Assembly: GCA_946479055.1 (NCBI GenBank)
Contig: CAMLEX010000002.1
Span: 1-26,840, forward strand
Length of the DNA: 26,840 nt
Source of the DNA: an uncultured Bacteroidota bacterium
GTDB lineage: Bacteria > Bacteroidota > Bacteroidia > Chitinophagales > Chitinophagaceae
Direction: 5' to 3'
Shown here one piece after another: positions 1 to 19,625 of this stretch. The position numbers and the translations under genes are program-made. The notes under the pieces are model-generated. The model saw only the letters and a program-made list of their open reading frames with translations. It searched no databases and was not told the origin of the DNA. Position 1 is the first letter of the stretch. Each line of letters starts with the position of its first letter.

Positions 1-102
1 TTTGTGTTTGATTTATTCAACAATCCGCAACTTCCTAATCTGTCGGATTTATCTAATGCAGAGTTATTGCCATATATTGGACTTTTCTCACTTATGGGTT
101 AA
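1..102 (+). CDS. 3' end of an unidentified gene (partial)
   Basis: Frame 1 is open from the first base to a TAA at 100-102, giving 33 residues that end in LLPYIGLFSLMG. This looks like the C-terminus of a gene that starts before the window. It is too short to assign to a family. The next ORF starts 18 bp downstream on the same strand, which fits a short operon. An open frame of this length can occur by chance, so the call is tentative. Confidence 0.4.
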   Translation, partial: FVFDLFNNPQLPNLSDLSNAELLPYIGLFSLMG

Positions 103-120
103 TTAGGCCTGGGCTCTTCG

Positions 121-327
121 ATGTTAACTCAGATAACCGCTAGAAAACTGCTTTACATTTTGGGCGTTATTTTTCTATGGTTAAGTGTGCTATGTTTGTT
201 GGTAGCCAGCTTTTATGGACACATTATCATCGGGAGTATCGTCTTTTGCATTCCCTTTCTGGTATCATCCCTTTATCCTTTTTTTAATAAAGTTGTTAGG
301 CAGATGTGGAATAAAATGAATGCTTAA
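121..327 (+). CDS. Small two-helix membrane protein, hypothetical
   Basis: This 68-residue ORF has two hydrophobic segments (about residues 10-31 and 34-55). They are separated by a short GH turn and followed by a basic tail (KVVRQMWNKM), so both termini probably face the cytoplasm. It follows the partial gene ending at 102 by 18 bp. I do not recognise a family. It is the first of the small plus-strand genes followed by a copy of the 200-bp repeat. ORF length and helix pattern favour a real gene, but no motif confirms it. Confidence 0.5.
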   Translation: MLTQITARKLLYILGVIFLWLSVLCLLVASFYGHIIIGSIVFCIPFLVSSLYPFFNKVVRQMWNKMNA

Positions 328-353
328 ACTTCGGGAAGTGCAGCCAACAAATA

Positions 354-391
354 AGGCTTCGTCGGGTGCGGCTTCACCAACGATGAAGCCT
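354..391. repeat. Imperfect hairpin after the 68-aa gene
   Basis: AGGCTTCGTCG at 354-364 pairs with CGATGAAGCCT at 381-391, with one G-U pair. Inner GGTG/CACC pairing and a two-base bulge lengthen the stem. It lies 27 bp after a stop codon, so it could terminate transcription, but no T-tract follows on either strand. It may instead be a small mobile palindrome. Confidence 0.45.
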
Positions 392-410
392 CAATTATAC
401 GGAACCTTTC

Positions 411-613
411 TTCCTCTTTCCTTCCCGAGTGTCTCACTTTCCTAGGCGATGTATCAGATAGTCATGTGCGTTGATTTTGCGGCACTTGCCGTACTATGGA
501 AATGAAGTTGAGTAGCTATCTAAACCGATCCGCAGAGTCTGATTTTTTTGTTTCATTTAATATTGACAAATAGTTAGATTGGAACAAATACTGACGTAAA
601 TACAAGCGTTGGC
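411..613 (+). repeat. 200-bp dispersed repeat, copy A
   Basis: This full-length copy runs from a CT-rich left end (CTTCCCGAGTGTC) to a GCGTTGGC right end. It aligns along its whole length with copy B at 1090-1292, sharing blocks such as CCGTACTATGGAAATGAAG and GACAAATAGTTAGATT. It lies between the 68-aa gene and the lipoprotein gene. No ORF is convincing within it. A TAGATTGG box at 575-582 is a one-mismatch Bacteroidota -7 element 88 bp before the next start codon. Confidence 0.85.
575..582 (+). promoter_or_regulatory. Candidate -7 box in repeat copy A
   Basis: TAGATTGG matches the Bacteroidota -7 consensus TAnnTTTG except at one base. The other full copies and copy D carry the perfect TAGATTTG at the equivalent place. 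It lies upstream of the lipoprotein gene at 671. The -33 element is poorly defined (TTTC about 20 bp upstream). Confidence 0.4.
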
Positions 614-670
614 TGCCATTTGCGCAACGTTTTCGATTGAAGAGATGTCAGAGTAATAAAGGGACTAATT

Positions 671-1084
671 ATGAAACAGATACTTTTTGCAATATTGACC
701 TTGACGATATTAATTTCTTCTTGCAAAAAGAATAATGCAGACAATGACAATGCTTTGATAATTAAAAATGGTACTTACATCGGCACATTTCAAAGACAAG
801 TTTCAGGAAGCGGACTAATCTCTAATGTGACAATTACTTTTAATCGCAGCGACTGGACAGGACAAAGTCAATATGCAAAATACCCTGCGTTATGTCGTGG
901 GACATATAAAATAGATGGTGCAGACCAGATAACTTTTGAAAATTCTTGCCCCTGGACAGCAGAATTCGATTGGACGCTAATTCTATCAGGAGAATATAAA
1001 CTTATAGTTAGTGGCAATAGCATTGAGATTTCAAAAGATTATAGTGGTGCATTTAAGGACATCTACAAGTTAACAAAGCAATAA
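671..1084 (+). CDS. Putative lipoprotein, small beta-rich, unknown function
   Basis: The 137-residue protein begins with a type II signal peptide and a lipobox ISSC with Cys18, followed by KKNNADND. It is therefore predicted to be a lipid-anchored periplasmic or outer-membrane protein. The mature part (NGTYIGTF, CRGTYKI, ITFENSC, LSGEYKLIV, IYKL) has alternating strands resembling a small lipocalin-like or META-type barrel. Two cysteines near residues 77 and 95 could form a disulfide. I recognise no named family. It sits between repeat copies A and B, whose promoter-like box probably drives it. Its start is supported by the signal peptide. Confidence 0.7.
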   Translation: MKQILFAILTLTILISSCKKNNADNDNALIIKNGTYIGTFQRQVSGSGLISNVTITFNRSDWTGQSQYAKYPALCRGTYKIDGADQITFENSCPWTAEFDWTLILSGEYKLIVSGNSIEISKDYSGAFKDIYKLTKQ

Positions 1085-1089
1085 ATTTT

Positions 1090-1292
1090 TTCTTCCTTCC
1101 CGGGCGTCCGCCCACTTTCAAAGACGAAGTGTCAGATAACCTTGTGCGTTGCTTTGTAACTCTCGCCGTACTATGGAAATGAAGTTGCATAACTACCTGA
1201 AACGATCCTCAGTGTGTGATATTTTTGGTTTCACTTAATATTGATAAATAGTTAGATTTGGAACAAAGAACGACGTCAATACAGGCGTTGGC
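1090..1292 (+). repeat. 200-bp dispersed repeat, copy B
   Basis: This full-length copy begins six bases after the lipoprotein stop and ends in CAGGCGTTGGC. It is the best reference copy. Conserved blocks are CTTCCCGGGCGTCCGCC, GTGTCAGATAAC, GTGCGTTG, CCGTACTATGG, AACGATCCTCAGTGTG and GATAAATAGTTAGATTTGG. It contains no convincing ORF and has no long internal palindrome, which argues against an attC site or a classic REP element. Confidence 0.88.
1253..1260 (+). promoter_or_regulatory. Candidate -7 box TAGATTTG in repeat copy B
   Basis: This is a perfect TAnnTTTG element near the right end of the repeat, 93 bp before the GTG start of the next gene. The same octamer is present in copies D and E. 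A clear -33 TTTG at normal spacing is missing (TTTC at about 20 bp). Confidence 0.45.
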
Positions 1293-1353
1293 GTCTATTT
1301 TGTTGGACATGGCGTCTCTTTGTGAATCAGAAAAAACAAAATAAACACCTGTA

Positions 1354-1998
1354 GTGAATAAGACAATTTATAAAGTTGGATTTTGGACAGGGATTATTGC
1401 ATTTGCTGCAACCGTTGCATTTTTCATCGTTCAGATTTTACAACTTTTAAAAATTCTAAGTTATCCATGGGACGAAATATCCATATACGGATTTTCTCTT
1501 TGCATTACTATTCCCTTTTTGCTTGAAATGCTTGCACTTCACCATATAGCGCCACCGGAGAAAAAGTATTGGAGCCATGCAGCTCTGATCTTTACTGCTA
1601 TATACGTAGTATTTGTTACAGCTAACTATGTTGTTCAATTAGCGACAGTAATTCCCATGACACGTAAAGGAGCTGCTGATGAAATTCGTATCCTCATTCA
1701 AACACCACACTCTCTCTTTTGGAACTTTGATGCCATTGGATATATATTTATGGGTTTAGCAACATTAGTTGCCGTGCCTATATTTGAAAAAGTGGGATTT
1801 CAAAAGTGGGTAAGACTTGTATTTTTAATTCATGGACTTGTCACCCCTTTAATTGCATTTGTTTATTTCTATCCTGACTTTTCAGATAAATTACTGCTGC
1901 TTGGTTTACCCTGGGGAATTACAGCACCAGCATCGATGTTAGTGCTTGCAATAATGTTTAAAAAGAATTATGAAATAAATAAATATAGCAATGAGTAA
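1354..1998 (+). CDS. Multi-pass inner-membrane protein, hypothetical
   Basis: The 214-residue protein has about six hydrophobic helices (roughly residues 10-32, 42-62, 72-97, 120-143, 150-172 and 180-201), with short polar loops and a lysine/asparagine-rich C-terminal tail. This suggests an integral inner-membrane protein. The layout resembles DUF4386-type proteins, but I cannot confirm this. The start used here is GTG at 1354, directly before NKTIYKVGFW. It is the second cargo gene of the repeat array, bracketed by copies B and C. Confidence 0.75.
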   Translation: MNKTIYKVGFWTGIIAFAATVAFFIVQILQLLKILSYPWDEISIYGFSLCITIPFLLEMLALHHIAPPEKKYWSHAALIFTAIYVVFVTANYVVQLATVIPMTRKGAADEIRILIQTPHSLFWNFDAIGYIFMGLATLVAVPIFEKVGFQKWVRLVFLIHGLVTPLIAFVYFYPDFSDKLLLLGLPWGITAPASMLVLAIMFKKNYEINKYSNE

Positions 1999-2040
1999 CC
2001 ACTACTCAACGGAAAAGGTTATTCGCTATACATTTGGCAT

Positions 2041-2142
2041 CTTTCTTCCTTACCGAGTATCTGTCCGCTTTCAAAAGTTATGTGTCAGATAACGTTGTGC
2101 GTTGATTGGTGGCACACTCACCGTGCCATAGAAATTTAATAG
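2041..2142 (+). repeat. 200-bp dispersed repeat, copy C (left half only)
   Basis: The sequence matches the left half of the repeat (CTTCCTTACCGAG, TGTGTCAGATAACGTTG, TGCGTTGATT, CACCGTGCCATAGAAATT). The similarity then stops at about 2142, where other copies continue with the AACGATCC block. The missing right half is found at 8566-8680, on the far side of the efflux operon. The two pieces together make one complete copy. Confidence 0.8.
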
Positions 2143-2182
2143 CCGGTTTATTTAGCACGGCGTAAGTAACACAACAGCTAAA

Positions 2183-2213
2183 GGCCATGCAATCTGCGAC
2201 AGATTGCATGGCC
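2183..2213 (-). terminator. Perfect 14-bp hairpin downstream of the efflux operon
   Basis: GGCCATGCAATCTG at 2183-2196 is perfectly complementary to 2200-2213, with a three-base loop. It lies 18 bp beyond the stop of the outer-membrane factor gene, which is read leftward, so it is placed as the operon terminator. Only TTT follows the stem in that direction, so termination may be weak or the hairpin may protect the mRNA 3' end. Confidence 0.6.
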
Positions 2214-2230
2214 ACAAAAACAAGAGCAGG

Positions 2231-3664
2231 TTATTTCCAACCGCCTCCCAAAGCCCTGTATATATTCACGACAGCGTTCAGTTGTTGTTTTTTGGTTTCT
2301 ACCAGTTCAAGTTTAGCTTCCAACGCATCCCGTTGCGTCATCAACACTTCCAGGTAATCAGCCCGTGCAAACTTGAAGAGATCGTTGGATATGTCAATCG
2401 ATTTTGTGAGGGCTGCTACTTGTTTTGCCTTAAAGTCATAACTCTTTTCAAGGTTGCTGATACCCACCAATTGTGTCGATACCTCGAGATAGGCATTTAA
2501 AATGCTTCTCTCATAATTATACATGGCCTGTAACTGTCTTGCATTGGCTGTATAAAATTCAGCTTTGATGGCATTCCGGTTGATCAGCGGCCCCGCCAGG
2601 TCGCCTGCCAGGGAGTACAACAACGACTCGGGAAGCTTCACCAGGTAGGAGGGGTTAAATGCCTGAAATCCTATTGCTGATGAAATCCCGAAAGAAGGAT
2701 AAAATTCCGCACGGGCAACTTTCACGTCCAGTTTCGCAGCCGCTAATGCCAGTTCCGCCTGCTTGATATCAGGCCGATTGCCGAGCAGTTGCGAAGGCAC
2801 CCCTGAACCAACGACGGCAGACACCATCTGTAGGAAATTGGCTGTATCCCTTGCTATGGGTTGCGGATATCGGCCCAACAATAAGTTGATCCGGTTTTCG
2901 GTTTCTTTTATTTGTTGAAGAATGTCGAATTGCAGGCTTTCGGATTTGAATACCTCGGCTTGAAATTTTTGCACGGCTAGTTCCGTAGCCCGGCTGGCCT
3001 CTTTTTGAATTTTCACGACGGAGAGAGCGTTTTTTTGCAGATCGATGTTTTGTTGTACAATCGTAAGTTGGTTATCAAGAGCCACCAATTCGTAGTATGA
3101 ATTGGCCACTTCGGCAACCAGGCCGGTCTGCACAAAATTTTTGCCCTCTACCGTTGACAAATACCGGCTGACCGCGGCTTTTTTGCTATTACGCAGCTTT
3201 TTCCAGATATCTACCTCCCAGTTTGCATAGGCAGCTACGGTAAAATCCATTAGCGGATCCGGCATTTCTTTTCCCGGTTTGATTTCGGTAGATGCATCAC
3301 CTGCACCCTGGCTGGTATACCTTCCCACTTTTTCAACACCAATACCTCCTCCTAACCCAACGGTTGGCAACAATGCACCCTTTCTAAGCCTTATTTCATT
3401 CCTTGCAATCTCGATTTCCTGCAACGTGATATTTAGCTCCTGGTTGTTTTGTATTGCAGTATCAATCAAACTTACAAGGGCTTTGTCTTTAAAGAAGGTC
3501 CGCCAATCAACTGTTGCTGCATTAGCTGTATCCCCTTTGTTATTGTAAGATTGGGGGACTGACCTGTTTTCGGCCCGCTGCACCATGGTGGGCGCCTTGC
3601 AACTGGCAACGGCAAGGCAGAGGCCGAGTATGCTGATATATGTATGTATCCTTAATTTAAACAT
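2231..3664 (-). CDS. Outer-membrane efflux lipoprotein (OprM/NodT family)
   Basis: The 477-residue protein is a TolC-like outer-membrane channel of a tripartite efflux pump. It has a type II signal peptide with lipobox VASC (Cys22), then two internally similar outer-membrane-efflux repeats. Typical family signatures are DWRTFFKD near residue 55, NWEVDIWKKLRN near 150, and LLGNRPDIKQAELALAAAKLDVKVARAEFYP in the second repeat near 295. Its ATG overlaps the stop of the RND gene (shared ATGTTTAA), so the two are translationally coupled. The length is normal for the family. The transported substrate cannot be read from the sequence. Confidence 0.95.
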   Translation of the reverse strand: MFKLRIHTYISILGLCLAVASCKAPTMVQRAENRSVPQSYNNKGDTANAATVDWRTFFKDKALVSLIDTAIQNNQELNITLQEIEIARNEIRLRKGALLPTVGLGGGIGVEKVGRYTSQGAGDASTEIKPGKEMPDPLMDFTVAAYANWEVDIWKKLRNSKKAAVSRYLSTVEGKNFVQTGLVAEVANSYYELVALDNQLTIVQQNIDLQKNALSVVKIQKEASRATELAVQKFQAEVFKSESLQFDILQQIKETENRINLLLGRYPQPIARDTANFLQMVSAVVGSGVPSQLLGNRPDIKQAELALAAAKLDVKVARAEFYPSFGISSAIGFQAFNPSYLVKLPESLLYSLAGDLAGPLINRNAIKAEFYTANARQLQAMYNYERSILNAYLEVSTQLVGISNLEKSYDFKAKQVAALTKSIDISNDLFKFARADYLEVLMTQRDALEAKLELVETKKQQLNAVVNIYRALGGGWK

Positions 3665-6600
3665 TGTGATCGATTTCTTCTGTTAATGGATTTTCTTCTT
3701 CGTCTTCAGTCAACATTCGCTTCTCTGCGATGCGGCCGAATATGTAATACAAACCGGGGATGATGAGTACCCCGAAAACAGTACCGAAAAGCATTCCCCC
3801 GGCAGCGGCAGTACCTATCGTTCTATTACCAATTTTACCCGGACCGGAGGCAAAAACTAACGGAATAAGCCCGGCAATAAATGCAAAGGAGGTCATTAGG
3901 ATTGGGCGGAATCTTACCACCGAACCTTCAATGGCGGCTTGTAATACCGTATATCCCGACCGGTGTTTCTGCACCCCAAACTCAACGATGAGTACAGCGT
4001 TTTTACCCAACAAACCGATTAGCATGATCATGGCCACCTGGGCATAAATATTGTTTTCCAATCCCAACAATTTCAGCAGGAGGAATGCACCAAATACACC
4101 GGCAACAAGCGATAGGATAACAGCAAAGGGCAACACAAAACTTTCATACTGCGCAGCCAGGATCAAATACACAAAGGCAAGGCAAATGATGAAAATAAAA
4201 ATGGCCTCATTACCGCGCCCCACCTCATCTTTGGATATACCGGCCCAATCGATAGCAAAACCTCTTGGCAAAGCTTTTTGCGCCACTTCGTTGATGACCT
4301 TAATGGCTTCGCCACTACTATAGCCGGGTGCAGACGAGCCGCTTATTTCCGAAGCATTATACATGTTGTGCCTGGTAATCTCCGACAGGCCATACACTTT
4401 TTCCATTTTCATAAAATCTGAGTAGGGGACCATTTCATCATGATTGTTCTTAACATATAGCTTCAGGATATCTTGTGGCAAGGCCCTGTATTGCGGCGAT
4501 GCCTGTACGATTACCTTGTACTGGCGGTCGTATTTGATAAAACTGATTTCGTAATTACTTCCTATCAGCGTGGAAAGTGTATTCAGTGCATTTTCAATGG
4601 TGATGCCTTTTTGTTGGGCCAGATCGTTGTCCACCCGTAGCATATATTGGGGATAGCTGGCGCTGTAAAAGCTGAATACTGAAGACAGCTCTTTACGTTT
4701 GTTGAGCTCTTTCACAAAGTCATTGTTCACCGTTTCCATTTTTTTATAATCGCCGGATCCTGCTTTATCCAGTAAGCGCAACTCAAAACCACCAGCGGCG
4801 CCATAGCCGGGAACTGCCGGCGGTTGAAAAAATTCTATGGTGGCGCCGGTGATGTTTTTTGTTTTCTCCTCCAGCTCTTCCATCACCTGCTGCACATTAT
4901 GCTTCCGGTCGTTCCAGCTTTTCAGGTTGATGAGACAGGTCCCTGCATTAGCACCCGTTCCTTCGGTAAGGATCTCATAGCCGGCCAGGGCGGAAACCGA
5001 CTGTACATCTTCAATCCCTTCGGCAATCTTTTGCAGTCTTTCCGCTATCTGGTTAGTTCTTTCCAATGATGAACCAGGAGGCGTTTGGATTACTGCATAA
5101 AACATTCCCTGGTCTTCGTTGGGAATAAAACCTGAGGGTACGCTGTTATTCAAAAAAAAGATTCCGATACAAAAAGCGATCAGCATTAGAAAGGTGACCA
5201 CTCTCTTATTAACTATCTTACCCAACACATTTTGATAACTGCCGGTGAGCCTGCTGAACCAATTATTGAAACCAGTCAGTATGCTATTCAACCATGTCTT
5301 CTTTTTTGGTTTGCCGTGGGTATTTTTCAACATCATTGCACAAAGTGCCGGTGTGAGGGTAAGCGCTACCACACCCGAAAGAATAATGGAAGTGGCCATC
5401 GTAATAGAAAACTGCCGGTAGAATATACCTACCGGACCAGACATAAATGCAACCGGGATAAACACGGCTGCCATTACGAAGGTGATAGCAACAATTGCCC
5501 CGCTAATCTCATGCATCGCTTCCATGGTGGCCTTGCGGGCTGAAAGGTGTTTTGTTTCCATCTTAGCATGTACCGCTTCAATAACTACAATGGCATTATC
5601 CACCACAATACCAATTGCAAGCACCAGGGCAAACAACGTGATAAGGTTTAATGTGATGCCGAAAAATTGCATGAATACGAAGGTGCCGATAAGGGAAACA
5701 GGCACCGCAATGGCGGGAATGATGGTTGAACGCCAGTCGCCGAGGAACAGGAAAACTACCAATCCCACCAGTATAAAGGCTTCCACAAGGGTATGAATTA
5801 CCTTTTCAATAGAGGCATCCAGGAATTTTGATACATCATAGCTGATCTCATAATCCATTCCTTTTGGAAAAGAGTTCGCCTTTATTTCCGCCATTTTCGC
5901 CTTTACTTTCTTAATTACATCGCTTGCGTTACTTCCATACGATTGCTTCAGCACAATGGCCGCCGAAGGTTTTCCATTCAGGTTGGAATAGATATCATAC
6001 ATCGAACTTCCAAACTCAATATCAGCCACATCTTTCAGGCGTAGTATTTCGCCGTCTGCACTGGATCGCAAGACGACATTTTCATATTGCTCCTTAGTGG
6101 TGAACCTTCCTGAATATTTTAAAACGTATTCAAATGCCTGGGACCTTTTACCAGAGCTTTCGCCTGTTTTACCCGGCGATGCTTCGAGGCTTTGCTGATT
6201 AAGTGCTTCCATCACTTCATCGGCAGATATTTTGTAAGCCAACATCCGGTCTGGTTTCAACCAAACCCGCATGGCATATTCACGGTTACCGACAATATCG
6301 GCAACACCTACGCCATCTACTCTTTTTAATTCTGACAACACATTAATATCCGCGAAATTGAAAAGGAATTTTTGGTCAGTGCTGGTGTCCTTGCTGTAAA
6401 GGTTGATGTACAGGAGCATATTCGATTCCTCGCGGGTGATCTTTACGCCTTCACGTACTACCAGTGGCGGCAGTTTATTAACTACTGATGCTACCCGGTT
6501 TTGAACGTTTAGCGATGCCTGGTTAGGATCGGTTCCCAGGTTAAAAACAACCTGTATGGTAGCCTCACCGTCGTTACCTGCATCTGATGCCATGTATTTC

Positions 6601-6824
6601 ATTCCCGGCACACCATTGATGGCTCTTTCCAGGGGAATGATTACAGACTTGATCATTAATTCGCCATTGGCTCCGGGATACGCCGCGGTAACATTCACCT
6701 TAGGCGGCGATATGGAGGGAAATTGAGTGACGGGTAATTGAGTAACAGCCAGGATGCCCAGGAAGACAATGATGAGGGATATGACAATGGACAGTACCGG
6801 CCTTTGTATAAATTTATTAAACAT
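3657..6824 (-). CDS. RND multidrug efflux permease (HAE1/AcrB family)
   Basis: The 1055-residue inner-membrane proton/drug antiporter forms the pump of the tripartite system. The N-terminus MFNKFIQRPVLSIVISLIIVFLG is the first helix, followed by LPVTQFPSISPPKVNVTA and the porter domain. The charged relay pair is visible in the fourth helix as GIVVDNAIVVIE near residue 400, with GPVGIFYRQF after it. The second half repeats the fold (GFIPNEDQG near 560, LIGLLGKNAVLIVEF near 940). Length and order match AcrB/MexB. It starts 22 bp after the fusion protein gene stops and overlaps the outer-membrane gene. Bacteroidota pumps of this type export antibiotics, dyes or detergents; the substrate here is unknown. 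Confidence 0.97.
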   Translation of the reverse strand: MFNKFIQRPVLSIVISLIIVFLGILAVTQLPVTQFPSISPPKVNVTAAYPGANGELMIKSVIIPLERAINGVPGMKYMASDAGNDGEATIQVVFNLGTDPNQASLNVQNRVASVVNKLPPLVVREGVKITREESNMLLYINLYSKDTSTDQKFLFNFADINVLSELKRVDGVGVADIVGNREYAMRVWLKPDRMLAYKISADEVMEALNQQSLEASPGKTGESSGKRSQAFEYVLKYSGRFTTKEQYENVVLRSSADGEILRLKDVADIEFGSSMYDIYSNLNGKPSAAIVLKQSYGSNASDVIKKVKAKMAEIKANSFPKGMDYEISYDVSKFLDASIEKVIHTLVEAFILVGLVVFLFLGDWRSTIIPAIAVPVSLIGTFVFMQFFGITLNLITLFALVLAIGIVVDNAIVVIEAVHAKMETKHLSARKATMEAMHEISGAIVAITFVMAAVFIPVAFMSGPVGIFYRQFSITMATSIILSGVVALTLTPALCAMMLKNTHGKPKKKTWLNSILTGFNNWFSRLTGSYQNVLGKIVNKRVVTFLMLIAFCIGIFFLNNSVPSGFIPNEDQGMFYAVIQTPPGSSLERTNQIAERLQKIAEGIEDVQSVSALAGYEILTEGTGANAGTCLINLKSWNDRKHNVQQVMEELEEKTKNITGATIEFFQPPAVPGYGAAGGFELRLLDKAGSGDYKKMETVNNDFVKELNKRKELSSVFSFYSASYPQYMLRVDNDLAQQKGITIENALNTLSTLIGSNYEISFIKYDRQYKVIVQASPQYRALPQDILKLYVKNNHDEMVPYSDFMKMEKVYGLSEITRHNMYNASEISGSSAPGYSSGEAIKVINEVAQKALPRGFAIDWAGISKDEVGRGNEAIFIFIICLAFVYLILAAQYESFVLPFAVILSLVAGVFGAFLLLKLLGLENNIYAQVAMIMLIGLLGKNAVLIVEFGVQKHRSGYTVLQAAIEGSVVRFRPILMTSFAFIAGLIPLVFASGPGKIGNRTIGTAAAGGMLFGTVFGVLIIPGLYYIFGRIAEKRMLTEDEEENPLTEEIDHNV

Positions 6825-6846
6825 TGACTGTATTAATTTGATTGAA

Positions 6847-7929
6847 CTATTCGGCTTTTAACCGCAATTGGGAAATCACATCTTCAGGTTTTTGAAATAC
6901 GTACCCGATCTTTTCGTCATCTTTTACTTTCTGAATGCCTTCAAGCAATACTTTGTCGGTTTCAGAAATGCCGCTGTTCACGAGGTAGAGATCAGGCATT
7001 TGACCACCAATAGTGATCTCTCTCGAACTAACAACATTGTCCCTACCTACAACAAAAACATATTTCTTATCCTGAATTTCGTAAGTGGCTTTTTGCGGAA
7101 TGATCAATGCATTTTTTTGCGGCATGGTCATTAGCACCTTACCCGTTTCACCATTTTTTAAAAGCAGCTCGGGGTTTGGAAAGTTGGCCCTGAAAGCAAT
7201 ATTTCCAGTTTCGTTATTGAACTCGCTTTCGATGGTTTCCACATTGCCCGCATATTTCAATGATTGGCTATTGGCGAGCAGCAGGTGCACCTGGGTGTTT
7301 CCCCTGCTTTTTTTATTAGTTTGATAATCAAGATACTCGGGTTCTGATACATTGAAATAGGCGTACATCTGGCTATTATCTGAAAGGGTAGTCAGCAACT
7401 CACCTTCATCAATAAGGCTGCCCAATTTCTTCGGCAGGCGGTCAATTGTGCCGTCAAACGGAGCCCTGATTTCTGTGAAAGAGAGGTGTATTTTTGCAAG
7501 CGCTGTTTCGGACTTAGCCTGGTCGAGTTTGGCCTGGGCCATTGCCTGCTCGTTTTTAGAAACCACATTTTTTTCCACCAGGGCTTTAGTGTTTTGTAGC
7601 TCTATCTCTGCCGCATTAGCTTCCGCCTGCGCTTTCATCAGCTCAGCCTCGTATATTTTCGGCATTATTTTAAATAAGACCTGGCCAGCCTTCACAAATT
7701 GACCCTCATCAACATATATATTTTGCAGGAAACCTTTTTCCTGCGCTCTTATCTCAATGTTCTTAATAGAACGTATTTGAGCAACATACTCTTTGGTAAA
7801 GGAAGTATCAACTCTTAGAGGGCATGTAACAGCGTACTTGCCAGCTTCTTCTTTTTTTTCTTTTTTAGGGGCACAGCTTGTTAGGCACACAAAGGCACAC
7901 AAGCCTGCGAACATGACTACTCTTTTCAT
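6847..7929 (-). CDS. RND efflux membrane fusion lipoprotein (AcrA/HlyD family)
   Basis: This periplasmic adaptor links the RND pump to the outer-membrane channel. I place the start at 7929, giving 360 residues, because MKRVVMFAGLCAFVCLTSC is a lipoprotein signal peptide with Cys19. The longer reading from 8097 adds 56 residues without signal character. The domain order is typical: a barrel-sandwich half (KNIEIRAQEKGFLQNIYVDEGQFVKAGQVL, split here by normal hairpins), a coiled-coil hairpin (AEANAAEIELQNTKALVEKNVVSKNEQ), the second lipoyl half (IRAPFDGTIDRL) and a beta-barrel (YAYFNVSEPEYL). It is the first core gene of the operon. Confidence 0.93.
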   Translation of the reverse strand: MKRVVMFAGLCAFVCLTSCAPKKEKKEEAGKYAVTCPLRVDTSFTKEYVAQIRSIKNIEIRAQEKGFLQNIYVDEGQFVKAGQVLFKIMPKIYEAELMKAQAEANAAEIELQNTKALVEKNVVSKNEQAMAQAKLDQAKSETALAKIHLSFTEIRAPFDGTIDRLPKKLGSLIDEGELLTTLSDNSQMYAYFNVSEPEYLDYQTNKKSRGNTQVHLLLANSQSLKYAGNVETIESEFNNETGNIAFRANFPNPELLLKNGETGKVLMTMPQKNALIIPQKATYEIQDKKYVFVVGRDNVVSSREITIGGQMPDLYLVNSGISETDKVLLEGIQKVKDDEKIGYVFQKPEDVISQLRLKAE

Positions 7930-8107
7930 GGTTGTAAACGGAAATAATTTGTTTGGGTGATTGGATGTAGAAATCCATTTGGCTACAAAACGGCTCAGGT
8001 AGTTAGGCTGCCAATTGAATAGAGGGGCAGGTTCAATGATGAAAATCAATGATAATCCGCCAACACTTAAGAGGCATCCAGAATAACTATTAAGCACTGA
8101 TGACGAA

Positions 8108-8467
8108 TCAGATTCTTAAATTTCTTTGTAAAATGTACCTGTGCGATGCATGCGGCCAAAAGAACGGGAATTTAGCAGAGTTGCGACGAAGATTTAAAAA
8201 AGATTGGTAAGAGGAGATGGAATGAAAACCAATAACCGATCTGTATTTTCCTGATAAATCATTTCCATCATCATCTTCCACATCTTCGCAAATGAGGATT
8301 TTATATTTTTCAGGTAGGCTACTGTTTTTACCAGAAACCTTATCCAGTCCTATCTTGTTGAGTGTTGCCGCTTCCGAGTTACTGCTGCTGAGCCCGACTC
8401 CTGCCAAAGAATTGACATTGCCGAACAGCATGAAAAATACGGAAGCTAAAAAAACAACTACTCTCAT
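8108..8467 (-). CDS. Small secreted protein upstream of the efflux operon, unknown
   Basis: The 119-residue ORF begins with a Sec signal peptide (MRVVVFLASVFFMLFGNVNSLAG, cleavage near residues 22-24). An acidic patch CEDVEDDDGND near residues 60-70 and a basic, aromatic C-terminus ending in YILQRNLRI follow. I recognise no family. It lies 178 bp upstream of the fusion protein gene on the same strand, and a TTTG-N16-TAATTTCG promoter-like pair sits directly before its ATG, so it may lead the operon transcript. The acidic cluster could bind cations, but that is speculation. The signal peptide and promoter support a real gene. Confidence 0.6.
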   Translation of the reverse strand: MRVVVFLASVFFMLFGNVNSLAGVGLSSSNSEAATLNKIGLDKVSGKNSSLPEKYKILICEDVEDDDGNDLSGKYRSVIGFHSISSYQSFLNLRRNSAKFPFFWPHASHRYILQRNLRI

Positions 8468-8475
8468 TTGTTGGG

Positions 8476-8503
8476 CGAAATTAGAAAAAAATGTGAAAGC
8501 AAA
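8476..8503 (-). promoter_or_regulatory. Candidate promoter of the small secreted gene/efflux operon
   Basis: Read on the minus strand, TTTG (8503-8500) is followed after 16 bp by TAATTTCG (8483-8476), one mismatch from the Bacteroidota TAnnTTTG box. Only eight bases separate the box from the ATG at 8467, so a start site about seven bases downstream would make a leaderless or nearly leaderless mRNA. Confidence 0.45.
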
Positions 8504-8565
8504 TGCAAATGGAATAGAATTAACAATGGCTTTACGATATTCTACGTCAGTGATAAACTTTACGC

Positions 8566-8680
8566 TGAATGTGTAGTGGACTGCCTAAAACGATCCTCAG
8601 TGAGTGATATTTTTTGTTCCATTTAGTATTGATAAATAGTTAGATTTGGAACAACTAATGACTTCATCAGGCGGTATGGC
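8566..8680 (+). repeat. 200-bp dispersed repeat, copy D (right half only)
   Basis: Similarity begins near 8566 and covers only the right half: AACGATCCTCAGTGAGTGAT, then GATAAATAGTTAGATTTGG and GAACAA, ending at CAGGCGGTATGGC. The missing left half is present as copy C at 2041-2142. It is followed by the DUF1801 gene, as other copies are followed by their cargo. Confidence 0.8.
8641..8648 (+). promoter_or_regulatory. Candidate -7 box TAGATTTG in repeat copy D
   Basis: This is a perfect TAnnTTTG element in the repeat, 83 bp before the DUF1801 start codon. The octamer is identical in copies B and E. Confidence 0.45.
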
Positions 8681-8731
8681 CAATGCACCTAGGCTATACA
8701 AGCAATTAGCTCCCCAATAAATGCATATAGC

Positions 8732-9151
8732 ATGGCAAAAACGAAGACATTTAAAACGGATCAGGATGTAACAGAATTTATTAATTCAGTTGCTGATGAA
8801 AAAAAACGAACAGATAGTTTCAAACTAGTAGCAACAATGTCAGGCGTTACTGGATTTAAACCTTACATGTGGGGACCAAGTATAATTGGATTTGGTAATT
8901 ATCATTACAAATATCAAAGCGGTCATGAAGGAGATGCCCCATTAGCAGGTTTCTCGCCCCGTAAAAACGCAATAACATTATACCTGGCTTCTAAGTTTCC
9001 GGAAAGAGATGAATTATTAAAGCAATTGGGAAAATATAAATTGGCTGTTGCTTGTATTTATATAAAAACACTTGACGACATCAACATTTCTATTTTAAAG
9101 AAAATGATCAGCGCATCAGCGAGATATGTAAAAAAGCTTTATCCCAATTAA
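8732..9151 (+). CDS. DUF1801 domain protein (YdhG-like)
   Basis: The 139-residue soluble protein shows the DUF1801 pattern: an N-terminal helix (DVTEFINSVADEKKRTDSFKLVATM), the core MWGPSIIGFGNYHYKYQSGHEG, FSPRKNAITLYL, then a helical half ending ISASARYVKKLYPN. This family shares the YdhG fold. Its function is not established, although some members are small regulators or frataxin-like. There is no signal peptide or membrane segment, so it is cytoplasmic. Length and ATG fit the family. It is a cargo gene of the repeat array, preceded by copy D and followed 22 bp later by a left-end fragment. Confidence 0.88.
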   Translation: MAKTKTFKTDQDVTEFINSVADEKKRTDSFKLVATMSGVTGFKPYMWGPSIIGFGNYHYKYQSGHEGDAPLAGFSPRKNAITLYLASKFPERDELLKQLGKYKLAVACIYIKTLDDINISILKKMISASARYVKKLYPN

Positions 9152-9173
9152 AAAATCGAAGTACTACCCATAA

Positions 9174-9200
9174 CTTCTTTCTTGACGGGGTGTCCGCCAA
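9174..9200 (+). repeat. Left-end fragment of the 200-bp repeat (F)
   Basis: CTTCTTTCTTGACGGGGTGT followed by CCGCCA matches the left ends of copies B and E and lies just after the DUF1801 stop. The rest of the repeat is absent. The next 240 bp hold a palindromic element, then copy E begins. Confidence 0.5.
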
Positions 9201-9284
9201 ACGATACTATATACAATCGAAGTTCGCTATACAAGGCTTGGAGAATAAGAATCATCTTAGAATCAGATTGCGTCGGTCTGCCTG

Positions 9285-9402
9285 CAGCATTCGTAATACG
9301 TCAACCTCGTATAGGCATCCCTCGCAATGACGGAGACTCCGGAGTATAAATGTTTTTTGTATTCCCGGAGTCTCCGTCATTGCGAGGCCGCTGAAAATGC
9401 TG
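9285..9402. repeat. Large palindromic element of the TCATTGCGAGG type
   Basis: The arms 9320-9342 and 9365-9387 are perfect 23-bp inverted repeats with a 22-base AT-rich loop. Outer CAGCATT (9285-9291) and AATGCTG (9396-9402) extend the symmetry. The core word TCATTGCGAGG belongs to a palindromic intergenic repeat seen in many bacterial genomes, with flanking sequence near 9266 (AGATTGCGTCGGTCTGCC) resembling its usual neighbour. It contains no gene and is probably a non-autonomous mobile element. Confidence 0.75.
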
Positions 9403-9440
9403 TTGCATAGTCGTTAAATGGCGCGGCTGAAACAATCTTC

Positions 9441-9634
9441 TTTTTTCTTGCCGGGTGTCTCCCCACTTTCACAAATTCTGTGTCAGGTGGCTTATGCATT
9501 GATTTGTGGCACCCGCCATATTATGGAAATTAAGGTGAGTAACTGTCTGAAACGATCCTCAGTGTGTACTATTTTTGTTCGATTCAGGTATTGATAAAGA
9601 GTTAGATTTGGAAGTAATAAGGATATAAATACAG
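9441..9634 (+). repeat. 200-bp dispersed repeat, copy E
   Basis: This near-full copy shares the left end (CTTGCCGGGTGTCTCCCCAC), then GTGTCAGG, GCCATATTATGGAAATTAAG, AACGATCCTCAGTGTGT and TTGATAAAGAGTTAGATTTGG. Its right end stops at AATACAG and lacks GCGTTGGC. It directly precedes the MDR oxidoreductase gene. Confidence 0.82.
9603..9610 (+). promoter_or_regulatory. Candidate -7 box TAGATTTG in repeat copy E
   Basis: This is a perfect Bacteroidota -7 element, 51 bp before the oxidoreductase start. No good -33 is seen (TTCG about 21 bp upstream). Confidence 0.45.
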
Positions 9635-9661
9635 TTTTAAAAAAAATGAATCTTACTAAAA

Positions 9662-10624
9662 TTGAAAGCAATTGTTTATACAAAATACGGCGGCCCTGAA
9701 GTTCTGCAGACCAAAGAAATAGAAAAACCTTATCCGAAGGACGATGAAGTCCTGGTAAAAGTTTATGCTGCATCAATAAATGATTGGGATGATGGCCTTC
9801 TCCATGGTGACTTCGTAAATCGGCTTCTAAACGGTCTTCTAAAACCGAAGAGACAAATACTTGGTTCCGATATTGCAGGACGAATTGAAGCAGTTGGCAA
9901 AAATGTAAAACAGTTTAAAGCAGGTGATGAAGTGTATGGTGATTTGAGTGGTCGCTGGGGAGGTTTCGCTGAATATACTTGTGCCACTGAAAAAGCATTA
10001 GCGCTGAAACCGGCCAGCATGAGCTTCGATGAAGCAGCGGCGATACCACAGGCGGCAATGTTGGCTGTACAAGGTCTTCTTGACAGAGGCAAAATTAAAC
10101 CAGGACAAAAGCTGTTAATTAATGGCGCAGGTGGCGGTGTTGGTACTTTTGGAGTGCAGATAGCAAAATTATACGGGGTTGAAGTAACTGGCGTTGATAG
10201 CACCAGTAAATTGGATATGTTGCGCTCAATGGGCTTTGATCATGTCATTGATTATACAAAAGAAGATTTCACTAAAAATGGGCAGTGCTATGATTTGATT
10301 CTTGACGTTAAGACCAATCGTTCGACATTCGATTATGCCCGTGCATTGTGCCGCAATGGAATTTATGTCACGGTTGGAGGTTCTATGGCCCGGCTTCTCC
10401 AGGCTTTGTTCCTGGGGCCGTGGATTTCGCTGATCAGTAAAAAGCACATCCGTATCGTCGCTCTGAAGCCAAACAAGGATTTAGCTTATATCAACGAGCT
10501 ATTCGAAACTGGTAAACTAAGACCTGTGATAGATGGACCTTATAATCTGGATGACGTTCCTGAAGCATTCAGGATTTTTGGAAAAGGAGAGCACAAAGGA
10601 AAAATGGTAATAACTATGTCTTGA
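9662..10624 (+). CDS. Zinc-independent MDR oxidoreductase (quinone reductase-like)
   Basis: The 320-residue protein belongs to the medium-chain dehydrogenase/reductase superfamily. It has an N-terminal GroES-like domain (MKAIVYTKYGGPEVLQTKEI, GSDIAGRIEAVGKNVKQFKAGDEVYG) and a Rossmann domain with the nucleotide motif NGAGGGVG at residues 154-161. The Cys/His/Glu ligands for catalytic and structural zinc are absent, pointing to NAD(P)H:quinone or enone reductase activity in the cytoplasm. The start is TTG at 9662, because the family N-terminus MKAIVY begins there. The nearby ATG at 9646 is in another frame and soon hits a stop. It is the last cargo gene of the repeat array. Confidence 0.93.
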   Translation: MKAIVYTKYGGPEVLQTKEIEKPYPKDDEVLVKVYAASINDWDDGLLHGDFVNRLLNGLLKPKRQILGSDIAGRIEAVGKNVKQFKAGDEVYGDLSGRWGGFAEYTCATEKALALKPASMSFDEAAAIPQAAMLAVQGLLDRGKIKPGQKLLINGAGGGVGTFGVQIAKLYGVEVTGVDSTSKLDMLRSMGFDHVIDYTKEDFTKNGQCYDLILDVKTNRSTFDYARALCRNGIYVTVGGSMARLLQALFLGPWISLISKKHIRIVALKPNKDLAYINELFETGKLRPVIDGPYNLDDVPEAFRIFGKGEHKGKMVITMS

Positions 10625-11044
10625 TGTGGCTAACTAATTGATCATTGATTTCAACCATTCATTGTATTCCCGGAAGTCCGGCTTCTTATTTTAAAGCCTT
10701 TCATTTTTTTAGATACAAAGGTGGAACTAAATACCATTAGTTCTGATACCATCATTCGCGGATTGGCGTTTATAATGGCATGGTAGAGCAATATTAACAT
10801 AAGACAGGTTTTGGTCAATTAAAATTCAGCAGGGTACGGATTAACAGGGTTTTTCAAAAGACGGATATACTTTTCATCAGGATATTAAAATAACCCGCTT
10901 ACAACAACACAAAGAAACGATTAAGGATAGCCTGAAAAAATAGAGCAAATTGCCAATCGGGGGTAATTATTTTAGTGAAGGAAATGTAGAATTTGATCTA
11001 CGGAAACCTACCCATATTTTCCACCGGAATGCTACGAAGAAAAA
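10625..11044. other. Gene-poor gap; left-end repeat fragment and possible decayed ORF
   Basis: About 45 bp after the oxidoreductase stop, TATTCCCGGAAGTCCGG (10665-10681) resembles the left end of the 200-bp repeat. From 10845 a plus-strand frame reads protein-like (GFSKDGYTFHQDIKITRLQQ, later GGNYFSEGNVEFDLRKP) but is broken by a TAG at about 10941. It has no start codon, so it may be a gene relic or chance. Nothing else is recognised. Confidence 0.3.
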
Positions 11045-11069
11045 ATGCCTCTGCATTTTGCAGAGGCAT
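11045..11069 (-). terminator. Rho-independent terminator, minus strand
   Basis: The 11-bp perfect stem ATGCCTCTGCA/TGCAGAGGCAT with a three-base loop is followed on the minus strand by TTTTTCTTCG, a good T-tract. It lies about 245 bp beyond the SRPBCC gene stop, so it may serve as a second terminator of the arsR operon or mark a lost gene. Confidence 0.6.
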
Positions 11070-11238
11070 AGATCTATGACACAGATAATAACAATTAGCC
11101 CAAACAAACTGATGCTTTGATTTGCTATCAAGGCTGCAGAATGTTGCCCATTCTATTGCCAGGTTCACTCAGGGTCACGATGCCCCAAAGCCCAGCTCTA
11201 AGGCATGGCTATGAAACCATTGAGAAAACCATTCGAAG

Positions 11239-11310
11239 AAAAAAGCATCAGTAAGGCAAAGAAAATCTTGTCAACTTTATTGTTTGATCATACCTGGCCG
11301 ATGCTTTTTT
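11239..11310 (-). terminator. Possible bidirectional terminator after the SRPBCC gene
   Basis: AAAAAAGCATC (11239-11249) and GATGCTTTTTT (11300-11310) are perfect 11-bp inverted repeats separated by 50 bp. They begin right after the SRPBCC stop. The long loop makes it weaker than a normal terminator unless the loop folds further. The A/T flanks would allow use in both directions. Confidence 0.4.
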
Positions 11311-11312
11311 TA

Positions 11313-11813
11313 TTATATACCTTTTGCCAGCAATTCATCAAGATTTGTGTGAGCGGCGCTAAATCCTTCTTTGAAGCCCATTTCAATTATCTTTTCCATA
11401 TCGGCTTCACTGTCGAATGCAATTTCCACTTCTACTTTTGTCCCGTTGGCCGATTTGTTAAATACGACTTTCCAATGCATACGGGCAAATTCTGTATTGA
11501 TCTTGCCATTTTCATCGCAGAAAGCATCAAGCCCGGTATACGATTTATTGGGAGCAATAGTTTCATAATCAGCCCTGCAATATTGACGGGTACCATCAGG
11601 CCCTTCCATGTAATAAAGCCAGGTGCCGCCTTCACGGAAATCCATTGACTGGGTGTTTGCTTTCCATGGTTTGGGCGCCCACCATTGATCAAGCAGTTCG
11701 CTTTCCGTCCAGGCTTTCCAGACCTGCTCTACAGGAGCATCAAATTCTCTTACTACACTGATTTTTTTGTTGATTACGTCTTTCGTGTAGATTGTTTCTT
11801 TTGTGGCAATCAT
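11313..11813 (-). CDS. SRPBCC/AHSA1-domain protein
   Basis: The 166-residue cytoplasmic protein has the Bet v 1-like START fold of the AHSA1 family. Signatures are ISVVREFDAPVEQVWKAWTE, LLDQWWAPKPW, FREGGTWLYYMEGPDG, MHWKVVFNKSANGTKVEVEI and the final helix GFKEGFSAAHTNLDELL. Such proteins have a hydrophobic cavity and bind small lipophilic molecules. The physiological ligand here is unknown. Its start overlaps the arsR stop by four bases (ATGA), so the two are translationally coupled. ArsR-AHSA1 pairs are common in bacteria, with the regulator controlling its own operon. Confidence 0.92.
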   Translation of the reverse strand: MIATKETIYTKDVINKKISVVREFDAPVEQVWKAWTESELLDQWWAPKPWKANTQSMDFREGGTWLYYMEGPDGTRQYCRADYETIAPNKSYTGLDAFCDENGKINTEFARMHWKVVFNKSANGTKVEVEIAFDSEADMEKIIEMGFKEGFSAAHTNLDELLAKGI

Positions 11814-12130
11814 GATTTTTTTGTTTTAATGTTTTTTAATACGGTATCTAATTGTTCAAACCGGGCTTCCCATTGTGCTCTGAATGGCTCAAGCCATTTA
11901 TCTACTTCTTTCATTTTTTTTGTATTTAAATAACAATAAATTTCCCTGCCAGAATGCTCTTGTCTCACCAATTGGCACTCCGTAAGGATTTTAATATGCT
12001 TTGATACGGCCTGCCTGCTGCAGTCAAAATGTTCAGCAAGGGCGTTGGGTGTCATTGCCTGAAGGGCTATAAGGGTAAGAATGGCCCTACGGGTGGGGTC
12101 GGCAATTCCCTGGAATACGTCTCGTCTCAT
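11810..12130 (-). CDS. ArsR-family winged-helix transcriptional repressor
   Basis: The 106-residue DNA-binding protein shows the ArsR winged helix: DVFQGIADPTRRAILTLIA at residues 4-22, a recognition helix LAEHFDCSRQAVSKHIKIL near 32-50, and a wing with GREIYCYL near 61-68. The metal-binding CxC motif of true arsenic sensors is missing, and the sole Cys lies in the recognition helix, so it is the SdpR/HTH_20-like type rather than a metal sensor. It is the first gene of a two-gene operon with the AHSA1 protein. Two palindromes over its promoter (12150-12191) suggest autorepression. ATG at 12130 fits the family's MRRDVFQ start. Confidence 0.93.
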   Translation of the reverse strand: MRRDVFQGIADPTRRAILTLIALQAMTPNALAEHFDCSRQAVSKHIKILTECQLVRQEHSGREIYCYLNTKKMKEVDKWLEPFRAQWEARFEQLDTVLKNIKTKKS

Positions 12131-12149
12131 TTTTGATATTATTTAATCA

Positions 12150-12191
12150 GCAACTATTCGGTTGCAAATATAAGCGCAATCGTTTGGTTGC
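12150..12191. promoter_or_regulatory. Tandem operators probably bound by the ArsR regulator
   Basis: Two 16-bp palindrome-like sites, GCAACTATTCGGTTGC (12150-12165) and GCAATCGTTTGGTTGC (12176-12191), are the same pattern GCAAY-N6-RTTGC. Their centres are 26 bp apart, about two and a half helical turns. They flank the -7 box and overlap the spacer of the arsR promoter, where a repressor would block RNA polymerase. Confidence 0.65.
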
Positions 12192-12196
12192 ACAAA
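12165..12196 (-). promoter_or_regulatory. arsR promoter
   Basis: On the minus strand TTTG (12196-12193) is followed after 20 bp by TATATTTG (12172-12165), a perfect Bacteroidota -33/-7 pair. The ATG at 12130 lies about 34 bp after the -7 box. Confidence 0.65.
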
Positions 12197-12281
12197 TCTT
12201 TTTTTTCACAACTGGCAGGTTGAAATTGCGGGGCTTAGTAAGGCAGCAAACTCACCCGGCAAAAGAAGTCGTCAAATACTG

Positions 12282-12289
12282 TAAATTCG
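12282..12289 (+). promoter_or_regulatory. Possible -7 box directly before the VOC gene
   Basis: TAAATTCG differs at one base from TAnnTTTG and ends four bases before the ATG at 12294. No -33 TTTG is visible at normal spacing, so this is weak. If used, the mRNA would be leaderless. Confidence 0.3.
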
Positions 12290-12293
12290 AAAG

Positions 12294-12653
12294 ATGAAAT
12301 TTGATAAAGCGATACCCATTCTTTATTCCGCTAATGTAGCGGTCAGCCTTGCCTACTATACGGAAGTACTGGAGTTTGAAAACAAATGGGGTTGGCAGGA
12401 TCCGCCAACATTCGGCGGGGTAAGCAAAGATTGCGTCGAAGTATTCTTTTGCGAAAAAGGGCAGGGGAGCCCCGGTACCTGGCTTTCTATATTTGTTGAC
12501 AACGTAGATGAATACTACGAAAGGATAAAAGCCAAAGGCGCTAAGATCCTTTCCGCTCCCGAAAGTATGGAGTGGAATGTACGTGAAATGCTGGTGGAAG
12601 ACCCCGATGGGCATAGGATAAGATTCGGGCATAGTATTGAGTCCACAGAGTAA
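12294..12653 (+). CDS. VOC-superfamily protein (glyoxalase/bleomycin-resistance-like)
   Basis: The 119-residue protein has the vicinal-oxygen-chelate fold in one paired beta-alpha-beta-beta-beta module set. Features are AIPILYSANVAVSLAYYTEVLEF at the N-terminus, a central WLSIFVDNVDEYYERIKAKGAKI, and the C-terminal MLVEDPDGHRIRFG. The length and the DPDGHRI ending match glyoxalase/bleomycin-binding relatives, which act in the cytoplasm as lyases, dioxygenases or drug-binding proteins. Neither substrate nor metal can be assigned. It is divergent from arsR across a 163-bp gap and could share its regulation. Confidence 0.9.
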   Translation: MKFDKAIPILYSANVAVSLAYYTEVLEFENKWGWQDPPTFGGVSKDCVEVFFCEKGQGSPGTWLSIFVDNVDEYYERIKAKGAKILSAPESMEWNVREMLVEDPDGHRIRFGHSIESTE

Positions 12654-12871: not shown

Positions 12872-12952
12872 TTGTAAACGACCTGTAATTCCTTCTTAGC
12901 GGACTTTGCGAAAAACTTTGTCTTCTCTTTGCGGTTAATTTTTTTTTACCGC
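12872..12952 (+). repeat. 80-bp inverted repeat, copy downstream of argS
   Basis: This stretch (AATTCCTTCTTAGCGGAC, then TTTGCGAAAAACTTTG and CTCTTTGCGGTTAA) matches the reverse complement of 15121-15197 almost base for base. Words such as TTTGCGGTTAA and GCAAAGTTTTTCGC belong to a short intergenic repeat common in Bacteroidota. It contains no ORF. Together with its partner it brackets argS. Confidence 0.8.
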
Positions 12953-15120: not shown

Positions 15121-15197
15121 GCGGTAAAAAAAGTTAACCGCAAAGAGAACACAAAGTTTTTCGCAAAGTCCGCTAAGGAATTATAGTTCGTTTACAA
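15121..15197 (-). repeat. 80-bp inverted repeat, copy upstream of argS
   Basis: Partner of 12872-12952 in opposite orientation (GTTAACCGCAAAGAGAAC, ACAAAGTTTTTCGCAAAG, TCCGCTAAGGAATTATAG). A partial direct copy of its end, TCCGCTAAGGAATTATAG, recurs at about 15278-15295 next to CTCTTTGCGTATTTTC, giving at least three members of this family around argS. Confidence 0.8.
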
Positions 15198-19616: not shown

Positions 19617-19625
19617 GTTATACAG

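What the first reader, a model, noticed from the sequence alone, without database searches (positions are those of the whole stretch)
411..9634. A 200-bp non-coding repeat alternates with five unrelated plus-strand genes
Copies A (411-613), B (1090-1292), C+D (2041-2142 with 8566-8680) and E (9441-9634) share extended blocks, yet the genes between them (68-aa membrane protein, lipoprotein, membrane protein, DUF1801, MDR oxidoreductase) are unrelated and all point the same way. This is the layout of a gene-cassette array, but the repeat has no attC-like palindrome and no integrase is nearby. It could be an undescribed cassette system, or a repeat that homologous recombination uses to shuffle genes.
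Basis: partly seen in the sequence, partly recalled or inferred. Interest (0 to 1): 0.8.

Follow-up and report, generated by a model that had tools for sequence, protein, structure and literature searches.

The report
Repeated promoter-bearing spacers between acquired genes
A stretch of about 215 non-coding bases is repeated four times between unrelated genes in a Bacteroidota-like genome; the repeat is real, does not look like an integron site, and most likely is a spacer with a promoter next to which foreign genes were collected.

Summary
The repeat is real: four copies of a ~215-bp direct repeat (A; B; C+D; E), 72-79% identical, far above shuffled controls. C and D are complementary halves of one copy (profile positions 3-107 and 111-233 of 244), split by a 6.4-kb minus-strand efflux operon. 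All copies face the same way; the 17 kb after copy E hold none.

The integron reading is not supported: neither strand of any copy folds better than shuffles, ends are not complementary, RYYYAAC is absent, and no integrase or transposase was recognised among 25 profile-scanned genes. One attC-like heptamer, GTTAGAT, is in the conserved core of all four.

The most conserved block holds TAGATTTG, a match to the Bacteroidota -7 promoter box (3 of 4 copies), with CGATCC 49-50 nt upstream in all four. So the repeat looks like a promoter-bearing spacer. One gene is clearly mobile: relatives named as a cyanobacterium and a WOR-3 bacterium are 75-76% identical.

Best reading: gene accretion by ordinary recombination at homologous spacers.

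The parts
1..102 (+). C-terminal end of an upstream reading frame; no repeat between it and the 68-aa gene
   Evidence: frame translation; Pfam none for the 33-aa fragment
121..327 (+). 68-aa predicted membrane protein (membrane by reading its sequence)
   Evidence: no Pfam; no NCBIfam
408..622 (+). repeat copy A (3' end set by eye; profile match extends to 639); box TAGATTGG
671..1084 (+). 137-aa putative lipoprotein; best-scoring other protein in the database is 75% identical
1085..1301 (+). repeat copy B (3' end set by eye; profile match extends to 1324); starts directly after the stop codon of the lipoprotein gene
1203..1208 (+). CGATCC block of copy B, invariant in all four copies, 49-50 nt upstream of the -7-like box (putative operator)
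1253..1260 (+). TAGATTTG, match to the Bacteroidota -7 promoter box TAnnTTTG (copy B); overlaps the heptamer GTTAGAT
   Evidence: consensus from PMC9723704 (passages) and PMC7366714 (passage)
1272..1295 (+). terminator-like stem of 9 pairs (4 G-C) near the end of copy B, between the putative promoter and the gene; listed for copy B only
   Evidence: consensus scan; also in the centroid fold
1354..1998 (+). 214-aa membrane protein, GTG start; family moved between phyla
2035..2142 (+). copy C = left half of a repeat (profile positions 3-107)
2143..8568 (-). 6.4-kb block that splits the copy: outer-membrane factor (2231-3664), RND permease (3657-6824), adaptor (6847-7929), 119-aa ORF (8108-8467), all minus strand
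8569..8691 (+). copy D = right half of the same repeat (profile positions 111-233; 3' end set by eye); TAGATTTG at 8641
8732..9151 (+). DUF1801 protein
   Evidence: Pfam PF08818, E 3.5e-10
9435..9636 (+). repeat copy E (3' end set by eye); TAGATTTG at 9603
9662..10624 (+). zinc-binding-dehydrogenase/MDR-type oxidoreductase (start codon uncertain)
   Evidence: Pfam PF13602, PF08240, PF00107

Best explanation
The repeat is a lineage-specific intergenic spacer module. Its right half carries a Bacteroidota-type promoter (TAGATTTG box, preceded by an invariant CGATCC block at constant distance) that drives the gene to its right; its left half follows the previous gene. Unrelated acquired genes sit between copies. 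I infer that the array grew by ordinary homologous recombination between spacers: a DNA circle or fragment with one gene and one spacer crosses over with a resident spacer, which leaves spacer-gene-spacer and puts the newcomer under a working promoter. Shown: the repeat, its order, orientation and clustering in this window, the split copy, the conserved box geometry, and the wide transfer of one of the genes. Inferred: promoter activity, the operator role of CGATCC, that the repeat is lineage-specific, and homologous recombination as the route.
For: All six pairwise scores lie far above shuffles. Copies lie only in the first 9.7 kb of 26.8 kb and all face the same way. Conservation peaks at ATTGATAAATAGTTAGATTT (17 of 20 columns invariant) with a second peak at ACCTGAAACGATCCTCAGTG (14 of 20), and fades about 30 nt past the first. 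CGATCC lies 49-50 nt before the -7-like box in 4 of 4 copies; TAGATTTG is exact in 3 of 4; repeat ends (set by eye) are 25-52 nt before start codons. TAnnTTTG occurs 5 times in the 932 repeat bases against 0.72 on average when each repeat piece is shuffled (0 of 300 shuffles reach 5); the copies are homologous, so these are two alignment positions, not five events. The box at -12 to -5 is the sigma-A consensus in Flavobacterium psychrophilum (PMC9723704, passages) and was deduced in B. fragilis (PMC7366714, passage). Exact shared runs of 28 bp (B/D), 23 bp (A/B) and 21 bp (B/E) remain as possible crossover tracts. The membrane protein's named relatives are Hanamia 85-86%, Pedobacter 84%, a cyanobacterium 76% and candidate division WOR-3 75% identical, while argS of this window is 49-51% identical to its four best plasmid-record matches, all within Bacteroidota. 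Four plus-strand genes have GC 0.340-0.353 against a 21-gene rest (Mann-Whitney p=0.0014, grouping chosen after looking; p=0.025 with MDR counted in).
Against: The copies have diverged to 72-79%, so recombination between them should now be inefficient (inference). No strain comparison exists. No clear -33 partner: the nearest suitable TTTG ends 24-25 nt before the box, longer than the spacing I recall, though the -33 motif was not found in F. johnsoniae either (PMC7366714, passage). A lacks the exact box (TAGATTGG). TAnnTTTG also occurs outside the repeats (6 of 11 plus-strand matches in the first 11 kb). In copy B a terminator-like stem (1272-1295) lies between box and gene, which would work against simple expression. 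The sigma-70-type scan is uninformative (28 sites against 24.5, sd 4.7, in shuffles). Three other genes of the window also have low GC (0.345, 0.350, 0.357) and MDR (0.43) does not fit. E lies 283 nt after the previous stop. The efflux block inside one copy is not explained by this model.
Confidence: 0.4

Rival explanations
1. The repeat is a dispersed intergenic element (REP-, MITE- or solo-type, moved by an enzyme encoded elsewhere) that happens to land between genes here and brings a promoter.
For: Apparently non-coding, ~215 bp, several copies, all between genes. Bacteroidota genomes carry many such repeats (recalled).
Against: No terminal inverted repeats (end complementarity reached or exceeded by 374-451 of 500 shuffles in 4 of 4 copies) and only 5-6-nt candidate target duplications in the three tested copies. 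All copies face the same way and none lies in the 17 kb after copy E.
Confidence: 0.25
2. A dedicated site-specific gene-cassette system that is not an integron: each cassette is gene plus repeat, and a recombinase encoded elsewhere acts on the conserved core (TTGATAAATAGTTAGATTTGG).
For: Cassette-like order and orientation; one mobile gene; the core is the most conserved part.
Against: No inverted arms around the core: in each copy the best inverted arm pair is reached or exceeded by 98-100 of 100 shuffles. No recombinase among the 25 window genes scanned by profile. Conservation runs about 30 nt past the core into the next leader. The one split copy is broken about 60 nt upstream of the core, not in it.
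Confidence: 0.18
3. A decayed integron array (CALIN: attC sites without integrase).
For: GTTAGAT, a match to GTTRRRY, is in the conserved core of 4 of 4 copies (these are homologous copies, so one event). In copy A ATCTAAAC lies upstream, one inserted base away from its complement (read by eye). Chromosomal integrons also have attC sites conserved in sequence, and some cassettes have own promoters (PMC8618304, passages), so those two traits of the repeat do not speak against it.
Against: RYYYAAC absent in 4 of 4; fold z-scores -0.72 to +2.15 over both strands of 4 copies (also 0.80 and 1.04 for B); about 215 bp long, which is more than the attC lengths I recall. No attC covariance model was on hand and Rfam gave nothing inside the repeats.
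Confidence: 0.07
4. Shared regulation alone: copies of one operator-promoter module kept upstream of neighbouring genes so that they are switched together, with no role in gene gain.
For: Constant 49-50-nt geometry of CGATCC and the box; both conservation peaks lie in the right half.
Against: Does not explain why the left half, next to the previous gene, is also 71-78% identical between copies.
Confidence: 0.1

Closest known systems
Chromosomal integron cassette array / CALIN
   Same: Tandem small unrelated genes in one orientation with a related non-coding repeat between them; a GTTRRRY heptamer in the core
   Different: No attC-like fold, no RYYYAAC box, longer repeat (length range recalled), a likely promoter in every repeat, no intI seen in the window
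Bacterial MITE/REP-type intergenic repeats
   Same: Short non-coding repeat family between genes that may carry a promoter
   Different: No terminal inverted repeats or clear target duplications, all one orientation, clustered at one locus of the window
Bacteroidota sigma-A promoters (-7 box TAnnTTTG)
   Same: TAGATTTG in 3 of 4 copies, shortly before a start codon
   Different: No well-placed -33 TTTG; activity untested

Membership tests
Integron / CALIN | attC site that folds as a single-strand hairpin | tested here: not met
   MFE z -0.72 to +2.15, both strands, 4 of 4 copies, with C+D joined in the script, 100 shuffles each; B also. No positive control was run.
Integron / CALIN | Paired core boxes RYYYAAC ... 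GTTRRRY | tested here: not met
   GTTRRRY in 4 of 4 copies, RYYYAAC in 0 of 4
Integron / CALIN | Match to an attC covariance model | not tested
   No attC model was available; Rfam at E up to 10 over 1-12300 gave 7 hits, none inside a repeat
Integron / CALIN | IntI integrase (not required for CALIN) | tested here: not met
   No integrase among 25 window genes scanned by Pfam or NCBIfam; shorter and overlapping frames were not scanned, and the rest of the genome is not held
MITE / insertion sequence | Terminal inverted repeats | tested here: not met
   End complementarity reached or exceeded by 374-451 of 500 shuffles, 4 of 4 copies
MITE / insertion sequence | Target-site duplications | tested here: inconclusive
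   Only 5-6-nt shared words around A, B, E, without a chance control; copy ends are ragged
MITE / REP dispersed repeat | Many copies across the genome | not testable with these tools
   No whole genome held; 4 copies in 26.8 kb, all in the first 9.7 kb
Bacteroidota sigma-A promoter | TAnnTTTG -7 box | tested here: met
   TAGATTTG in B, D, E; TAGATTGG in A; 5 matches in the repeats against 0.72 in shuffles
Bacteroidota sigma-A promoter | -33 TTTG element | tested here: inconclusive
   A TTTG/TTG ends 24-25 nt before the box in 4 of 4

The most novel reading that the evidence does not exclude
Probability: 0.15. Interest if true: 0.8.

Novelty: new variant of a known kind. Interest (0 to 1): 0.4.

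Why it matters
Integron arrays are the model for stepwise gene capture. A promoter-bearing, non-attC spacer that separates acquired genes would be a second, simpler way to build expressed gene arrays. Against that, the evidence so far is one locus in one genome fragment; without strain comparison it may be an ordinary local repeat family.

Tried and rejected
Integron/CALIN: not supported by fold, box and end tests. Inverted-arm tyrosine-recombinase core at AAAT-AGTTAG-ATTT: noticed by eye, but scored against shuffles no copy has a better inverted pair than chance, and the top three pairs per copy mostly fall at different places. MITE with terminal repeats: rejected. Decayed coding sequence: not supported, frames of A, B and E are not jointly open. 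Known RNA family: none at the repeats. Target duplication or inverted ends around the 6.4-kb block: only weak alignment scores (22 and 23), not compared with shuffles.

Searches for other copies: the core pattern TTGAYAAAKAGTTAGATTTGG (fits 3 of the 4 window copies; A differs) gave 0 in viral contigs and 1 in genome contigs. That one, L019, is similar over 18-25 bases only, and its genome has no better match (best E 0.37), so I take it as chance. ACGATCCTCAGTGNGT gave 18 viral stretches; those reported at E up to 1 are similar over at most 37 bases. CGATCCTCAGTGN{20,45}AGTTAGATT and GTCAGATAACNTTGTGCGTTG gave 0 in viral contigs. Copy B gave no match in plasmids or phages. The membrane protein gave one weak plasmid match (31%), none in phages, and none in viral contigs (39 stretches fit a pattern, none was a relative); 5 of 80 genomes in the phylum of the chance-match genome have a 30-36% relative, and 2 of 5 there have DUF1801; neither says anything about the array.

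Choosing the DNA core for the only genome-contig scan was my mistake in hindsight: a protein query would probably have led to host relatives.

Papers, judged by titles and starts of abstracts only: integron+Bacteroidetes+attC+Chitinophagaceae (0 papers), Chitinophaga+attC+gene cassettes, gene cassette+integron+Bacteroidota (35 papers, 15 listed), cassette/direct repeats/Bacteroidetes/without integrase/mobile gene (18 papers, 10 listed), intergenic repeat/gene cassette and others (9 of 9 listed): none of those listed is titled as describing such an array. TANNTTTG+promoter+Bacteroidetes (12 papers, 8 listed) gave the promoter papers.
Full report
The observation. A profile built from the four copies finds them at 408-639, 1085-1324, 9435-9656, and in two halves at 2035-2141 and 8570-8700; nothing else in the 26.8 kb reaches E<1. 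The building sequences match by construction, so the independent check is the pairwise one: local scores of 122 to 197 against 300 dinucleotide shuffles per pair with maxima of 25 to 32, and global identities of 72-79%. C covers profile positions 3-107 and D 111-233 of 244, so they are one copy cut near its middle.

What splits that copy. Between 2142 and 8569 lie, all on the minus strand, an outer-membrane factor, an RND permease, a periplasmic adaptor and a 119-aa frame without a Pfam family. No transposase was seen among these four, and the joints show no clear duplication or inverted ends (alignment scores without a shuffle control). The block therefore entered a pre-existing repeat, or the two halves were separated by rearrangement; I cannot say by what enzyme.

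Anatomy of the repeat. It begins 0, 36, 80 and 283 nt after the previous stop (B, C, A, E) and ends, with 3' ends set by eye, 25 to 52 nt before the next start. Of 262 alignment columns 106 are invariant in all four copies. The strongest window is ATTGATAAATAGTTAGATTT (17 of 20), a second one is ACCTGAAACGATCCTCAGTG (14 of 20); conservation falls to nothing within about 30 nt after the first. The first block contains TAGATTTG in B, D and E and TAGATTGG in A. TAnnTTTG is the sigma-A -7 box of Flavobacterium psychrophilum, at -12 to -5 (PMC9723704, passages seen), and was deduced from 23 promoters in B. fragilis (PMC7366714, passage seen). CGATCC lies 49, 50, 50 and 50 nt upstream, about -60 if the box is used, where an activator might bind (inference). 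TAnnTTTG occurs 11 times on the plus strand of the first 11 kb (shuffles: mean 6.7; 14 of 200 reach 11), 5 of them in the 932 repeat bases (mean 0.72 in shuffled repeats; 0 of 300 reach 5), 6 outside. The copies are homologous, so this is conservation of one arrangement and not independent finds. Against a simple promoter: no well-placed -33 TTTG, and in copy B a terminator-like 9-pair stem at 1272-1295 between box and gene (terminator-like sites overall 14 against 10.2, sd 3.6, in shuffles).

Not a recognisable integron. Both strands of four copies fold no better than shuffles (z from -0.72 to +2.15), ends do not pair, RYYYAAC is absent from all four, and best inverted arms with a 5-9-nt spacer are at chance level; no positive control was run. 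What stands for it should be told: the heptamer GTTAGAT fits GTTRRRY and lies in the invariant core of 4 of 4 copies. It overlaps the promoter box, and I take the promoter as the better account. Integrons have been reported in Bacteroidota, and chromosomal ones tend to have attC sites conserved in sequence and structure (PMC8618304, passages); the folded structure is called essential for attC (PMC9668308, passages).

The genes. The 214-aa membrane protein has 4547 relatives with E up to 0.001 in the protein collection, of which 120 were listed; all 120 are at least 73% identical, and six of them carry an organism name: Hanamia (two) and Chitinophagaceae at 85-86%, Pedobacter at 84%, the cyanobacterium Tumidithrix helvetica at 76% and candidate division WOR-3 at 75%. 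An alignment of the window protein with 11 picked from that list shows 73-89% identity. Relatives in the phylum sampled are only 30-36% identical (5 of 80 genomes), and the window's argS is 49-51% identical to its four best plasmid-record matches, all Bacteroidota. The DUF1801 protein has two relatives at 98-99% and 14 more, next in rank, at 83-91%, none with an organism name; the organism names farther down the 120 listed of 7991 are Bacteroidota. The lipoprotein's best-scoring other relative is 75% identical (a partial one 78%), and the organism names among the 120 listed of 225 are Bacteroidota (kinship of the genera recalled). Wide transfer is thus shown for one gene, not for all. Low GC (0.340-0.353 in four genes, p=0.0014 against 21 others, grouping chosen after looking; third-position GC p=0.048; p=0.025 if MDR is counted in) is weak support, since three other genes of the window are similar.

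The argS matches and the named relatives point to Bacteroidota, perhaps Chitinophagaceae (inference).

What could not be done. No genome is held for the window. So in that exact form the core is not found elsewhere in that collection (contigs of 3 kb or more); diverged forms would have been missed. The way to tell accretion, site-specific cassettes and a dispersed element apart, comparison of neighbours between strains, remains open.

Judgement. I favour a promoter-bearing spacer that served as the seam for gene gain by homologous recombination (0.40), over a dispersed element (0.25), a new site-specific system (0.18), shared regulation alone (0.10) and a decayed integron (0.07).

Noticed in passing
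window 9260-9400: Long inverted repeat (CCGGAGTCTCCGTCATTGCGAGG type, read by eye) between the DUF1801 gene and copy E; at 9320-9387 it gives weak, probably spurious Rfam hits on both strands. Looks like an inserted palindromic element.
   Followed up: no
window 12895-12946 and 15126-15177: 52-nt inverted repeat, 96% complementary, on either side of argS; resembles a second dispersed intergenic repeat family.
   Followed up: no
window 19625-19673 and 21463-21592: Short tandem-type repeats (GGTTTGAAGTTTGA, TCTGACTTC), the latter inside the C-terminal part of an ABC-F-like gene.
   Followed up: no
window 1354-1998: Membrane protein family without a Pfam or NCBIfam match yet with thousands of relatives, the best 120 at least 73% identical and named from several phyla: a highly conserved, mobile unknown gene that merits its own study.
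   Followed up: partly
window 11313-12653: AHSA1, ArsR-type regulator and glyoxalase genes next to the array; gene types that also turn up in cassette arrays (recalled), but with no repeat between them.
   Followed up: partly
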